A stretch of DNA of 64,000 nucleotides, taken from the NCBI GenBank assembly GCA_017647795.1, contig JAGCJX010000020.1, forward strand, positions 1 through 64,000. Direction: 5' to 3'. Made by a program: the position numbers and the translations under genes. Below are positions 3,399 to 29,827 of this stretch, one piece after another. The stretch is from Bacteroidales bacterium. GTDB lineage: Bacteria > Bacteroidota > Bacteroidia > Bacteroidales > UBA932. Each line of letters starts with the position of its first letter. Position 1 is the stretch's first letter. A model generated the notes under the pieces. It was not told where the DNA came from, searched no databases, and saw only the letters and a list, made by a program, of their open reading frames with translations.

Positions 3399-3406
3399 TA
3401 TTTTTG
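3399..3406 (+). promoter_or_regulatory. -7 box upstream of the NifX-like gene
   Basis: TATTTTTG lies 49 nt before the start codon of the NifX-like gene, giving a predicted leader of about 43 nt. No clear TTTG is seen at the -33 position. Confidence 0.45.
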
Positions 3407-3455
3407 TGCGGATTTTAGCATCCTCAACGAAAAATATAAATATACACATAGTGCC

Positions 3456-3821
3456 ATGAAAATTGCCGTTCCCACCCGTGAAGGTCACATCGATGACCAC
3501 TTCGGACACTGCGACCACTACACCATCTACACAGTTGAAAACCAATCTATTTTGAGCAAAGAAGACCTTCCCTCCCCCCAAGGATGCGGTTGCAAATCCG
3601 GCATTGCTGCCGACTTGCAAGCCATGGGCGTCACCGTGATGCTCGCCGGCAACATGGGTCCCGGCGCTTTGAACAAACTGCAAGCCCACGGAATCCAAGT
3701 CATTCGTGGCTGCCACGGACCGATTGACACCGTTGTCAACCTCTTCCTCGCAGGTGTACTGGCCGATTCTGGTATTGGTTGTGCCGGTCACAGCTCAGAA
3801 CACCACTGTGGTGGACATTAA
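3456..3821 (+). CDS. NifX/NifB-type iron-molybdenum cofactor-like protein
   Basis: A small protein of the dinitrogenase iron-molybdenum cofactor biosynthesis fold (NifX/NafY/VnfX family), 121 residues. The family start M-K-I-A-V-P and the D-x-H-F-G-H motif are present, followed by G-C-G-C, G-C-H-G-P-I-D, and a C-terminal tail rich in Cys and His (C-A-G-H-S-S-E-H-H-C-G-G-H). No nif gene is in the window, so a nitrogenase role is not supported; family members in non-fixers are thought to bind metal clusters. It is 24 bp ahead of the YbaK gene on the same strand. The Cys/His tail suggests metal binding (inference). Confidence 0.85.
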   Translation: MKIAVPTREGHIDDHFGHCDHYTIYTVENQSILSKEDLPSPQGCGCKSGIAADLQAMGVTVMLAGNMGPGALNKLQAHGIQVIRGCHGPIDTVVNLFLAGVLADSGIGCAGHSSEHHCGGH

Positions 3822-3845
3822 TCGTCCCATTGACTATCCGAAGCC

Positions 3846-4328
3846 ATGGCTGCCATCAACAAAACGAACGTCGCCCGCCTGCTGGATGCCCGCAAGGTTG
3901 CTTACGAACTCATCCCCTACACCGTGGATGAAAACGACCTCGCGGCCACCCACGTAGCCGAGGAGCTCAACGAAGACATCGCACAAGTCTTCAAAACCCT
4001 CGTCCTGCGCGGAGACAAAAACGGCCTCTTTGTCTGCGTCATCCCCGGAGATCAGGAGGTTGATTTGAAAAAAGCAGCCAAACTCTCCGGCAACAAAAAA
4101 GCAGAAATGATTGCAGTCAAAGAACTGCAACCCCTAACAGGCTACATCCGGGGTGGCTGTTGCCCCATCGGAATGAAGAAGCCCTTCCCGACCTGGATCC
4201 ACGAAACCTGCCAATTGTTCCCGTACATATTCGTCAGTGCAGGCGTACGGGGCCTACAACTCAAAATAAACCCCGACGACTTGTTACAAGTGGTCGGGGC
4301 TAAACCTGCAGATTTGATCAAAGACTAA
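3846..4328 (+). CDS. ybaK: Cys-tRNA(Pro)/aminoacyl-tRNA deacylase, YbaK/EbsC family
   Basis: A trans-editing deacylase expected to hydrolyse mischarged Cys-tRNA(Pro). The protein has 160 residues, the usual length of free-standing YbaK. Visible family features are the N-terminal T-N-V-A-R-L-L-D, the central F-K-T-L-V-L-R-G strand, the lysine-rich K-K-A-A-K-L-S-G segment, and the loop G-Y-I-R-G-G-C-C-P-I-G (about residues 98-108), which forms the substrate pocket in this family. It follows the NifX-like gene by 24 bp and overlaps the stop of the convergent creatininase-like gene by 4 bp. Confidence 0.92.
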   Translation: MAAINKTNVARLLDARKVAYELIPYTVDENDLAATHVAEELNEDIAQVFKTLVLRGDKNGLFVCVIPGDQEVDLKKAAKLSGNKKAEMIAVKELQPLTGYIRGGCCPIGMKKPFPTWIHETCQLFPYIFVSAGVRGLQLKINPDDLLQVVGAKPADLIKD

Positions 4329-5098: not shown

Positions 5099-5860
5099 TT
5101 AAACGCCTTTTACGCGTTCTTTGTATTCTTTGATACAAGCATCCAAACGTTCGTGCGCGGTGGTGTCGCCCGGAACGTTGTGTGACGGGTGGATGTACAA
5201 TTTCACGCCTCTTTCTTCCAAAATTTCAGCCACGGTACAGATGGTCATCCAAACGGTGGTAATGAAGGCCATGGTTGAGAGGGGACCGATCTTGTCTTGG
5301 TGGTTCTTCAAAGAAACAGAAGCATCCACGATGGGGCAGCATGAATCCACTACATAGTCAGCAATTTGGAAGAGGTTCTTTCCACCGGAGTGACGGGGAA
5401 CTTTAGCACCGGTTTGTTCTGCCGAACCGTAAACGATCACTTTCATGCCACGTTTTTTAGCTTCCAAAGCCACGTCGATGTTCACGGCATTGATACCGGT
5501 GTGTGAGAAAATCCACAACACGTCGCGTTCATCGAAGTTCCAGCTATCCATAATGGCTTTACCATAACCTTCAGTTCTTTCCAAGAACAGGAATTGGTTG
5601 ATACCCATTTCACCGGTGATGTGGGTGAAGAAAGTCAACGGAAGTTCACAAAGCGGGTGAAATCCCACGAAACCACCAATTCTCGGATACATTTCTTCGA
5701 TCGGCAAATTGGCGTGACCGCAACCGAAGGTGTGCACCCAACGACCCGCTTGAATCGCATCAGCCATGACTTCAGCTACTTTCTTAATTTGCTCCATTTG
5801 AGTTTCCTCAATTTTGTTCATCACGCCAAAGGCGTTCTTTTTCCATTCGTTTGCTAACAT
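5099..5860 (-). CDS. SIS-domain sugar-phosphate binding protein (UPF0309-like)
   Basis: A single SIS (sugar isomerase) domain protein of 253 residues. The N-terminal helix is followed by the phosphosugar loop T-F-G-C-G-H-A-N (about 44-51) and a second site I-F-S-H-T-G-I-N (about 119-126). It resembles the UPF0309-type SIS proteins rather than MurQ or GlmS. SIS proteins isomerise or cleave phosphorylated aldoses or amino sugars, or sense them. Its place between an MFS transporter and a creatininase-like hydrolase, behind a ROK kinase, suggests it acts on the product of that kinase. Spacing is 32 bp to the MFS gene. Confidence 0.85.
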   Translation of the reverse strand: MLANEWKKNAFGVMNKIEETQMEQIKKVAEVMADAIQAGRWVHTFGCGHANLPIEEMYPRIGGFVGFHPLCELPLTFFTHITGEMGINQFLFLERTEGYGKAIMDSWNFDERDVLWIFSHTGINAVNIDVALEAKKRGMKVIVYGSAEQTGAKVPRHSGGKNLFQIADYVVDSCCPIVDASVSLKNHQDKIGPLSTMAFITTVWMTICTVAEILEERGVKLYIHPSHNVPGDTTAHERLDACIKEYKERVKGV

Positions 5861-5892: not shown

Positions 5893-7053
5893 TTAATTGT
5901 TTTTCTCTGTAAAATTCTTAGCCACACGTGTCGCAATGGGCAAAACCGCCAACATCAAAACCACGGCCAAGATCAGAAATACCGGGAACAGGTTGGAGCT
6001 TCCGGCTTGGAACGTACGTCCTGCCACAAAATTCAGCGAATAATTACCGCACAGACCCAGGAACATCGCAATGGAAATGGCAGAACCGGTCATCCGACTA
6101 AAAGCAGATCCGACGCGGGCCAGGATAACGGGGAAGGTCGCACTCACCCCGATACCGAGCAGCAAGGTACTCACGTACGGCAAGATCACCGATGCATCGG
6201 CAAAGTACATCGTCAATGCTCCCAACAACGCCACAACCAAAAAGCCCGCCAACAAGGCAACATCCTTGAAACGACCCATCAACACACTCAGACCCACGCG
6301 GCCGATCAACATACCCACGGTCAACAAGGTCAAGGCCAATGTTGCCATGCTGGGATCCAAGCCTTGCTTCGTCAAGAACATGGCCGTATAATTCCCCGAA
6401 ATTGCTTCCAAACCGCTTTGGAAGAACAACACCAAAGAGAACAGCAGGATCACCGGATAACGCAACAAGCGAATGGAATCGGTATAACCCACCTGCCCTT
6501 GCGGTTTGGCTTTCGGAAACGAAATGCAGCAGAAATACACAATGAACAACACAATGAGTACCGAAGCCACGGTCAACGGAATCGTATAATCATCGATGAA
6601 CGAGCAGGCCAAGGTCCAGCAAAGGGCCCCCACACAATAAAATGCGCTCATGATACTCATCATCCGACCGCGTTTGGGATCCTCGTAAATATCCGACACC
6701 AAGGCATTGGTCGCCCCGTTCAAGATACCGCCACCGATCCCCAAGACAATCATACACAGGCGTAACGGGCCCATGTGTTCAAAGTTTGCCAATCCCAACA
6801 AACCGCCCAAAGCAAGGACGGATGCGGCAATCATCAAACCTTTGTATCCAAACTTATCGACTACAGGACCGAAGAAAATAGTCCCTAAAATAATACCGAT
6901 GGACAAAAACTGCGGCAGGGTCACCGCCTGCGGAAGTCGCAGTGTCAAAGGATTCATAATAGCCCCGAGTGCCAACATGATTACGCCGAAGATGGCGATC
7001 CCGGCACAAGCTGCCACAAATACCTTCGGAACAGAATAAGATTTACTTTCCAT
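5893..7053 (-). CDS. MFS transporter, probably for a sugar or sugar derivative
   Basis: A major facilitator superfamily permease of 386 residues with about twelve hydrophobic segments. A G-x-x-x-D-K-F-G-Y-K motif in the loop after helix 2 (about residues 62-71) and D-P-K-R-G-R-M after helix 4 match MFS loop signatures. It starts 5 bp after the ROK kinase stop, so the two are co-translated. The companion kinase, SIS protein and hydrolase point to uptake of a phosphorylatable carbohydrate; the substrate is not determined. Confidence 0.88.
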   Translation of the reverse strand: MESKSYSVPKVFVAACAGIAIFGVIMLALGAIMNPLTLRLPQAVTLPQFLSIGIILGTIFFGPVVDKFGYKGLMIAASVLALGGLLGLANFEHMGPLRLCMIVLGIGGGILNGATNALVSDIYEDPKRGRMMSIMSAFYCVGALCWTLACSFIDDYTIPLTVASVLIVLFIVYFCCISFPKAKPQGQVGYTDSIRLLRYPVILLFSLVLFFQSGLEAISGNYTAMFLTKQGLDPSMATLALTLLTVGMLIGRVGLSVLMGRFKDVALLAGFLVVALLGALTMYFADASVILPYVSTLLLGIGVSATFPVILARVGSAFSRMTGSAISIAMFLGLCGNYSLNFVAGRTFQAGSSNLFPVFLILAVVLMLAVLPIATRVAKNFTEKNN

Positions 7054-28102: not shown

Positions 28103-28115
28103 GTCATTCCCGGCT
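28103..28115. repeat. Half copy of the GTCATTCCCGGCT repeat
   Basis: A 13-nt exact match to the left part of the 27-bp palindromic repeat, in the same orientation as the full copy at 28126. Confidence 0.7.
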
Positions 28116-28125
28116 CCTGTGTCGC

Positions 28126-28152
28126 GTCATTCCCGGCTTGACCGGGAATCTC
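28126..28152 (+). repeat. 27-bp palindromic repeat, left copy
   Basis: Contains ATTCCCGG-N5-CCGGGAAT. The whole 27 bp is repeated exactly, in reverse orientation, at 29717-29743 on the other side of the Rpn gene. Confidence 0.85.
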
Positions 28153-28166
28153 AAAGACGTGCGCTC

Positions 28167-28259
28167 CCTTCCGCAACCCCCTACGCACACTCAAGAAATA
28201 CAACCGCCTGGCGACCAGCCTTCAGAGAATCCGTACCGTGCGTAGGGGGTTGCAGAAGG
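28167..28259. repeat. 22-bp inverted repeat with 49-nt loop
   Basis: Arms 28167-28188 and 28238-28259 pair over 22 bp with one mismatch; the inner 16 bp (GCAACCCCCTACGCAC) are perfect. There is no T-run after it on the plus strand, so it is not an ordinary terminator. Confidence 0.8.
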
Positions 28260-28377
28260 CGGCGTGTAGAGTTTTAAGAATTCCAGCAATTTTATAAATT
28301 TCACAATTTCTTGCTGCTGCTCGTAGAATTTTACGCTTTGGTAAGGCCAGGTGCTGAAAAATGCCGAGTCTTGCGGC

Positions 28378-29292
28378 ATGGTACATATTAAACAATCAAC
28401 AGAGCATCGTCCACGGAAGGTGGACTTGCTCTCAAATGCCGGTTTTAAGGCAGTCTTTGGCGATCAGAACAACAAGCAGGTACTGATCGATTTTTTGAAC
28501 TCGGTGCTCCCGCGCGGTCGGAAGGTCAAGGACCTGACCTATGCGACGACGGAATTTGCGGGTGCAACGTTGGAGAACCGGGGTGTGGTGTTGGACCTTC
28601 GGTGTGAGGATGAGGACGGTACAACGTTCATCGTGGAGATGCAGCGATACCGGCAGGATCATTTTGCCGAACGGTGTATGATGTATGCCTCGCGGGTGTA
28701 CGACTCCCGGTCCCGCGAGGAGATTGAGAATTTCAAGATTCCGCCGGTTTACTTGGTAGCAATCTTGGCAACCGATGATTTTGACCGGAGCCATCCTGCG
28801 TGGAAAGACCGTTATGTTTCCGTATATTCTATGAGGGAAGATAAAACACATGAGTTGTTAAACGATTCAATTTATATTATCTTTGTGGAGCTGAAGCGAT
28901 TCAACAAGGCGTTGGAAGCGTGTGATAGCCTGCAAGATAAATGGTGTTTTGCACTCAAGCACATGTCCCGGCTGGAGGCCCTGCCTGAGAAGTTGCAGAC
29001 GGATATTTTCCGACGTTTGTTTGAAGCCGCTGAAATAGCAGAATTCAGCATTGAAAAACGACAACAATACGACAAAGACATGATCACCGAACGCGATTGG
29101 GAAAATATCAAAAACACCGCTCGCCGGGAAGGACGAGAGGAAGGACGTGAAGAAGGACGCGAGGAAGGACGCGCTGAGGGACTCGCGCAAGGTCATCGCG
29201 AGGTAGCAAAGAATCTCAAAGCTCTGGGGCTTTCCTCTGCGGATATCGCCAAGGCGACCGGCTTAACGCTTGAAGAAATTGAAGCGCTGTAA
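28378..29292 (+). CDS. Rpn-family recombination-promoting nuclease (PD-(D/E)XK)
   Basis: 304 residues of the Rpn/YhgA-like nuclease family, formerly annotated as transposases. The N-terminal motif K-V-D-L-L-S-N-A-G-F-K-A-V-F-G leads into the nuclease core: D in V-V-L-D-L-R-C (about 72) and E-x-Q in I-V-E-M-Q-R-Y (about 84-88). The C-terminal part has four E-G-R-E repeats encoded by 12-nt tandem repeats, then a helical end (L-S-S-A-D-I-A-K-A-T-G-L) typical of the family. ATG 28378 is preferred over an in-frame GTG at 28351. Family members are DNA endonucleases linked to RecA-independent recombination and, in E. coli, to phage defence. It is flanked by long noncoding DNA rich in inverted repeats. 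Confidence 0.9.
   Translation: MVHIKQSTEHRPRKVDLLSNAGFKAVFGDQNNKQVLIDFLNSVLPRGRKVKDLTYATTEFAGATLENRGVVLDLRCEDEDGTTFIVEMQRYRQDHFAERCMMYASRVYDSRSREEIENFKIPPVYLVAILATDDFDRSHPAWKDRYVSVYSMREDKTHELLNDSIYIIFVELKRFNKALEACDSLQDKWCFALKHMSRLEALPEKLQTDIFRRLFEAAEIAEFSIEKRQQYDKDMITERDWENIKNTARREGREEGREEGREEGRAEGLAQGHREVAKNLKALGLSSADIAKATGLTLEEIEAL
29122..29172 (+). repeat. 12-nt tandem repeats encoding E-G-R-E
   Basis: Four slightly diverged copies of a 12-nt unit of the form CG-x-GA-x-GAAGGA, in frame inside the Rpn gene. Such repeats are common at this place in the family and can change copy number without a frameshift. Confidence 0.7.
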
Positions 29293-29320
29293 TTTCTCCC
29301 GCATCTACTGACTAAACGAC

Positions 29321-29356
29321 AATGCCGCATCTTTCACGGATGCGGCATTGATTTTT
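29321..29356 (+). terminator. Terminator of the Rpn gene
   Basis: A perfect 11-bp stem (AATGCCGCATC / GATGCGGCATT) with a 7-nt loop is followed by a short T-rich stretch. Confidence 0.8.
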
Positions 29357-29595
29357 AATAACACACCAAACCTTCGTGCACGCTATTCTGTCCAATCAGC
29401 AAGTCCAGCAAAGGTTGTTGAGCACGAAGGGTTCCCGCTAAAACCCTTTACAAACACCAATCGACTTTAAAACCGCCTATGGCGCAAATGTGCGTTCACG
29501 AAAGTTTGCGCACAGGCGTCACCCCGTAATACCCTGACAACCAATCCCCCGCAGACCCAGACCCTGACCCAGACTCGCCGCCTCCAGGCGAGCCG

Positions 29596-29652
29596 AGAGA
29601 TTTTCAGAATGTGGGAGGAAGCCTGCGACCGACCTTCTTTCTGAAAATCTCT
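29596..29652. repeat. Perfect 14-bp inverted repeat
   Basis: AGAGATTTTCAGAA (29596-29609) and TTCTGAAAATCTCT (29639-29652) pair perfectly around a 29-nt loop. Confidence 0.8.
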
Positions 29653-29716
29653 GCGGCCGCCTATAATCCAACGCGGGGACCTACCGAGATTTCCGGTCGC
29701 AGCCGGTCATGACGTA

Positions 29717-29743
29717 GAGATTCCCGGTCAAGCCGGGAATGAC
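29717..29743 (-). repeat. 27-bp palindromic repeat, right copy (inverted)
   Basis: The exact reverse complement of 28126-28152. Confidence 0.85.
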
Positions 29744-29776
29744 GTTTGCTTTGTCATGACTGGCTATGTCTGGCGT

Positions 29777-29789
29777 GTCATTCCCGGCT
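29777..29789. repeat. Half copy of the GTCATTCCCGGCT repeat
   Basis: Exact 13-nt match to the left part of the 27-bp repeat. Confidence 0.7.
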
Positions 29790-29800
29790 ATGTTTAACGT

Positions 29801-29827
29801 GTCATTCCCGGCTTGAGCGGGAATCTC
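29801..29827 (+). repeat. 27-bp palindromic repeat, third copy
   Basis: Differs from the copy at 28126 by one base in the second palindrome arm (GAGCGGGAAT for GACCGGGAAT) and has the same orientation. It ends 22 bp before the stop codon of the transporter gene. Confidence 0.8.

What the first reader, a model, noticed from the sequence alone, without database searches (positions are those of the whole stretch)
28126..29743. Rpn nuclease gene enclosed by 27-bp perfect inverted repeats
The 27-bp sequences at 28126 and 29717 are exact reverse complements and bracket the Rpn gene with its noncoding flanks. Each is itself a palindrome, and a near-identical third copy (29801) and two half copies (28103, 29777) lie just outside. 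They occur nowhere else that I see in 64 kb. Rpn proteins are nucleases tied to recombination and to defence. The segment may be a mobile or nuclease-targeted unit, or the Rpn gene may have landed in a REP-like cluster.
Basis: partly seen in the sequence, partly recalled or inferred. Interest (0 to 1): 0.65.

Follow-up and report, generated by a model that had tools for sequence, protein, structure and literature searches.

The report
Toxin genes bracketed by REP palindromes
The inverted repeats around this DNA-cutting toxin gene are ordinary dispersed hairpin repeats (REPs) rather than the ends of a transposon, but in this gut bacterium pairs of them enclose toxin-type genes unusually often, which suggests how such genes might be shuffled.

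Summary
The repeats are real: 28126-28152 and 29717-29743 are exact reverse complements (28 bp with the outer C/G), far beyond chance. They are REP elements of the CGTC-tagged type: CGTC tag, 8-bp stem starting AT, 5-nt loop, short tail. About 20 copies lie in this 1.82-Mb Bacteroidales MAG, including stem-compensated variants. They do not end a transposon. In the only congener held (G001) an rpn gene sits at the same place after gapA, but the REPs around it differ. Homology among rpn copies ends 3' at another hairpin (about 29,660), not at the REP. I found no target-site duplication. What remains interesting: of seven gene-containing REP-to-REP intervals, six hold a toxin-family gene or the genome's only Y1 (RAYT-like) gene. 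A REP-rich block with rpn and a toxin-antitoxin pair is absent from G001, where ferritin and the next gene lie 9 bp apart; the Y1 interval is also empty there. Rpn 3' flanks share a hairpin family with the Y1 gene's flanks. Best reading: a REP mosaic with an embedded rpn toxin gene exchanged through its repeated flanks; RAYT-driven cassette movement is possible but unproven.

The parts
28103..28116 (+). partial REP (GTCATTCCCGGCTC)
28125..28152 (+). CGTC-type REP, left copy: CGTC + 8-bp stem + CTTGA loop + CTC tail. Homology between the C17 and C16 rpn copies begins 1-2 bp upstream, at about 28124
28162..28264 (+). leader hairpin (27-bp arms, GCAACCCCCTACGCAC); the leader as a whole recurs at G000:C16 before a RelB/PIN pair and before a second rpn, where the 5' arm of the hairpin is deleted
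28378..29292 (+). rpn gene (Rpn/PDDEXK_2 nuclease, 304 aa from ATG), with 12-bp repeats in the C-terminal part
29080..29292 (+). predicted intragenic antitoxin RpnS (70 aa from the internal ATG, MITERDWENI...); by analogy with E. coli and with standalone copies in relative G032
29369..29430 (+). hairpin of the AACCTTCGTGNACG family, shared with the flanks of the Y1 gene on contig C22
29586..29669 (+). terminal hairpin at which homology among rpn-unit copies ends (also C3 start twice, C25 start once, C16 start twice)
29717..29744 (-). REP, right copy, exact reverse complement of the left one; absent from the equivalent place in G001
29777..29790 (+). partial REP
29801..29827 (+). REP, third copy (1 mismatch); a REP also lies on the aspT side in G001

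Best explanation
The 27-mers are CGTC-type REP palindromes that form a mosaic cluster in the convergent gap between gapA and an AspT-like transporter. An rpn toxin gene with its own repeated, hairpin-rich flanks sits inside the cluster. Shown: the repeats are dispersed, structure-conserving REPs; rpn copies share flanks that begin at a REP and end at a hairpin; such blocks are present or absent between two congeneric species; in this genome REP pairs enclose mainly toxin-family genes. Inferred: rpn and toxin-antitoxin modules change places by recombination between the repeated flanks, perhaps helped by breaks made by Rpn or by the Y1 transposase-like protein at the hairpins, while the REPs are gained and lost independently. 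The toxin modules survive there because convergent gaps tolerate insertions and losing a toxin-antitoxin pair is costly.
For: 20 genome-wide copies within 3 mismatches, including GTCATTG..CAATCTC and GTCATCC..GGATCTC variants that keep the stem paired. Geometry fits the CGTC families of PMC3733652. Same leader (86-91% identity) before rpn on C17, rpn on C16 and RelB/PIN on C16. Block absent in G001, where ferritin and the next gene are 9 bp apart; Y1 interval empty in G001. Rpn 3' flank 98% identical between species, against 36-56% 4-fold divergence in neighbours, and only about 70% identical to same-genome copies. Six of seven gene-holding REP intervals carry toxin-type or Y1 genes against 1 of about 54 genes in the window.
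Against: The gene categories were chosen after seeing the loci, from one incomplete MAG. GNAT and DUF3990 are only toxin-like; DUF3990 looks truncated and PIN frameshifted. In other genera the same REPs are mostly solitary or inside genes and do not flank toxins. The C30 rpn has no such REP nearby. No recombination event was observed, and the C16-C3 join is inferred from synteny. The 98% flank could partly reflect constraint.
Confidence: 0.6

Rival explanations
1. REP/RAYT cassette mobility: the genome's Y1 HuH protein, whose gene is itself bracketed by CGTC REPs, excises and inserts single-stranded segments delimited by REPs and hairpins, moving rpn and toxin-antitoxin genes as passengers.
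For: The only Y1 gene lies between two REPs in direct orientation; most other bracketing pairs are direct too; the interval is absent in G001; a hairpin family is shared by rpn and Y1 flanks (7 of 7 hits in 159 kb, chance 0-1); the HuH (NHVH) and YIDRN motifs are readable in the protein.
Against: REPtrons are reported not to move as units (PMC6006769). The Y1 match is weak (22.7 bits against a cut-off of 23; 17.4 against 80). The window pair is inverted. Unit ends vary, and no junction with a defined target was found. In G001 the Y1 homologue lies elsewhere, without this REP.
Confidence: 0.17
2. Coincidence of two tolerant passengers: REPs and toxin modules each accumulate in convergent, non-essential gaps, without any mechanistic link.
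For: REPs are known to favour convergent and downstream sites (PMC3733652). Window, ferritin and Y1 loci are convergent gaps. In other genera REPs occur without toxins.
Against: Different toxin genes share the same leader starting at the REP. Six of seven intervals is far above a 2-10% baseline (binomial 4e-10 to 6e-6, post hoc).
Confidence: 0.2
3. The 28-bp inverted pair is the terminal inverted repeat of an rpn-encoded transposon.
For: Perfect inverted arms around a gene annotated as a putative transposase; several rpn copies in the genome.
Against: Copies do not end at the 3' REP; G001 has rpn at the same site with different REPs; no target-site duplication; published work finds no terminal repeats and no autonomous rpn transposition (PMC10327210).
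Confidence: 0.03

Closest known systems
CGTC-tagged REP superfamily (Di Nocera et al. 2013, PMC3733652), including Neisseria dRS3 and rickettsial RPE-6/RPE-4
   Same: CGTC tag, 8-bp stem starting with AT, 5-nt loop, short unpaired tail, dispersed and clustered copies, in-frame copies inside genes, mosaics with other repeats as in Neisseria
   Different: tail CTC rather than the usual CCA; low copy number; [quoted passage not shown]
rpn (YhgA-like) toxin with intragenic antitoxin (Kingston 2017 PMC5350276; Zhong 2023 PMC10327210)
   Same: PD-(D/E)XK family gene, variable 12-bp (4-aa) repeats near the C-terminus, internal start for a small C-terminal protein, patchy presence, several copies per genome
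   Different: the paper reports no defined ends; here copies share flanks starting at a REP and ending at a conserved hairpin
REPtron: REP-flanked TnpA-REP/RAYT gene (PMC6006769)
   Same: Y1 gene with NHVH and YIDRN motifs bracketed by REPs and by hairpin repeats, as described for a Bacteroidetes subclass with atypical structures
   Different: the bracketing REPs are of the CGTC type; the protein scores below or only just at the family cut-offs

Membership tests
CGTC REP | unpaired CGTC tag at one end | tested here: met
   definition
CGTC REP | 8-9 bp stem beginning with AT pairs, 4-5 nt loop | tested here: met
   ATTCCCGG/CCGGGAAT stem with CTTGA loop; fold
CGTC REP | short unpaired tail, mostly CCA | tested here: inconclusive
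   tail present but CTC
CGTC REP | dispersed, mainly intergenic copies with compensated stem variants | tested here: met
Rpn toxin-antitoxin | PDDEXK_2/Rpn nuclease domain | tested here: met
   PF12784 E=4e-54; TIGR01784 127.7 bits against cut-off 52.1
Rpn toxin-antitoxin | variable 4-aa repeats after an internal start | tested here: met
   12-bp repeats; number differs between G000 and G001
Rpn toxin-antitoxin | RpnS translated separately and blocking the toxin | not testable with these tools
   standalone RpnS-like ORFs in G032 are consistent
IS-like transposon with terminal inverted repeats | both ends fixed across copies at the inverted repeats | tested here: not met
IS-like transposon with terminal inverted repeats | target-site duplication | tested here: not met
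   nothing beyond a REP-derived 7-mer in the flanks
REPtron/RAYT | Y1 HuH transposase gene flanked by REPs | tested here: inconclusive
   flanking REPs met; protein below family cut-offs, though the genome-level match is just over the Pfam cut-off

The most novel reading that the evidence does not exclude
CGTC REPs, said to lack a dedicated transposase, work here with a divergent Y1 protein, and REP pairs delimit exchangeable cassettes carrying rpn and other toxin modules, giving rpn genes a vehicle for their known horizontal spread.
Probability: 0.15. Interest if true: 0.72.

Novelty: new variant of a known kind. Interest (0 to 1): 0.42.

Why it matters
How rpn genes move, and what mobilises CGTC REPs, are both left open in the papers read here (PMC10327210, PMC3733652). 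A genome where REP pairs enclose toxin modules and the only Y1 gene, with present/absent sites in a sister species, makes both questions testable.

Tried and rejected
Terminal-inverted-repeat transposon: rejected on unit boundaries and G001 synteny. A recent single insertion at gapA: not supported, since rpn is at the same place in G001. A link of the 27-mer to rpn across the family: not found; G035 has five near-exact copies and no rpn, while G032 and G013 have many rpn genes and no near-exact 27-mer. Rfam: no meaningful match. Viral contigs: no exact copy of the 28-mer. Plasmids: only distant rpn homologues below 60% identity. Papers linking REPs with toxin modules: nothing direct among the titles and abstracts listed.

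Full report
Observation. The 27-mers at 28126 and 29717 are exact reverse complements and extend to 28 bp with the outer C/G. A third copy with one mismatch lies at 29801, with half copies at 28103 and 29777. None is expected by chance. Each is a hairpin with an 8-bp stem and 5-nt loop. Between the outer pair lies an rpn gene, in a convergent gap between gapA and an AspT-like transporter.

Identity of the repeat. The window is contig C17 of a 1.82-Mb, 86% complete assembly. The 27-mer occurs 5 times exactly and 20 times within 3 mismatches. Variants GTCATTGCCGG..CCGGCAATCTC and GTCATCCCCGG..CCGGGGATCTC change both stem sides together, so the hairpin, not just the sequence, is kept. The make-up (CGTC tag, AT-starting 8-bp stem, 5-nt loop, short tail) fits the CGTC REP superfamily of Di Nocera et al. 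2013, which includes Neisseria dRS3 and rickettsial RPEs (PMC3733652). The tail is CTC, not CCA. Exact copies also occur in other genera of the family, some inside coding frames.

Not transposon ends. In G001, the only congener in the set (JAFYSH01, MAG RGIG7376, water buffalo cecum), an rpn gene 95% identical in protein follows gapA in the same orientation. The REPs differ: G001 has REPs at C6:14791 and 14351 and a long hairpin element upstream of rpn, no copy at the place of 29717, and one next to the transporter side at 5188. Homology between the C17 and C16 rpn copies starts at the left REP (about 28124), but the rpn 3' halves at the starts of contigs C3 and C25, and the hairpins at the start of C16, match C17 only to the hairpin at about 29,660. 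I found no target-site duplication.

What lies between REPs. Seven REP-to-REP intervals hold a gene: rpn (C17), RelB plus PIN (C16), RelE/Gp49-type plus XRE (C1), GNAT (C22), DUF3990 (C28), the only Y1 transposase-like gene (C22), and one lipoprotein-like host gene (C1). A second rpn on C16 lies just after a REP, but its contig ends inside the gene. GNAT has no visible partner, DUF3990 matches only part of its profile, and the PIN frame looks shifted. In the window, about 1 of 54 genes is of this kind (ten small genes were scanned, the rest judged by inspection). The binomial value is 4e-10 at a 2% baseline and 6e-6 at 10%, but the categories were chosen afterwards.

Presence and absence. In G001 the ferritin gene and the next gene (fucosidase-like by sequence) are 9 bp apart. 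In G000 ferritin is followed on C16 by three REP units, a long hairpin element, leader plus RelB/PIN, a second hairpin element, then leader plus rpn to the contig end; the orthologous next gene is on C3, preceded by an rpn 3' half and hairpins. That C16 and C3 flank one gap is inferred from this synteny. The Y1 interval is likewise absent in G001, where 144 bp separate the flanking alignments. A toxin pair on C1 has no counterpart next to the orthologous gene in G001. Gain in G000 and loss in G001 cannot be told apart with two species.

Shared flanks. The same leader precedes two rpn copies and RelB/PIN (86-91% identity). A hairpin family AACCTTCGTGNACG has 7 hits in 159 kb of fetched G000 sequence, all in rpn 3' flanks or Y1 flanks (0-1 by chance; the sample is biased toward these loci). 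The 3' flank of the gapA-linked rpn is 98% identical between species, while 4-fold sites differ by 36% in gapA, 56% in aspT and 52% in ferritin, and 21% in rpn; same-genome copies C3 and C25 are only about 70% identical there. Exchange of the unit between lineages explains this more easily than constraint alone, but both are possible.

Mechanism. Most likely REPs spread independently, and rpn and toxin modules with repeated flanks are exchanged by recombination in convergent gaps. Movement by the Y1 protein is a rival: its gene is REP-bracketed and its flanks share hairpins with rpn units, but its family scores are weak and REPtrons are described as not moving as units. Zhong et al. report no fixed ends for rpn genes; here the 5' limit coincides with a REP and the 3' limit with a hairpin, which is the new element.

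Noticed in passing
L153:3348-3614 and 3678-3932 (G032:C6); L154 reverse strand 3405-3635: Full-length rpn followed by one or two tandem standalone ORFs equal to its C-terminal part, each starting at the internal Met (MITERDEINIRR...), like separate antitoxin copies. PMC10327210 mentions small homologues downstream of some rpn genes.
   Followed up: partly
L053:3886-3912, L054:3908-3934, L057:3861-3887: REP copies inside open reading frames in G035 and G052, adding peptides such as HSRLDRES or IPGQAGND, as in rickettsial RPE insertions.
   Followed up: no
L025:16419-16612 and 17701 onward; L048:14760 reverse: A long (about 195 nt) hairpin element (fold z about -8 for the region) found twice on C16 and once at gapA-rpn in G001.
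   Followed up: partly
L026:4803-5040 and 6117-6340: Long direct repeats with internal hairpins on both sides of the Y1 gene, inside the outer REPs.
   Followed up: partly
L027:1-428; L029:about 3560-3754; L119:2996-3403: Tandem-repeat tracts giving repetitive peptides such as RPSTKTASGMDTRHKN and CLRVDFLRVD in G000 and G001.
   Followed up: no
L150:1 and L151:1 (starts of contigs C3 and C25): Both contigs start just before the internal RpnS start codon, which suggests assembly breaks in multicopy rpn sequence or standalone RpnS copies.
   Followed up: no
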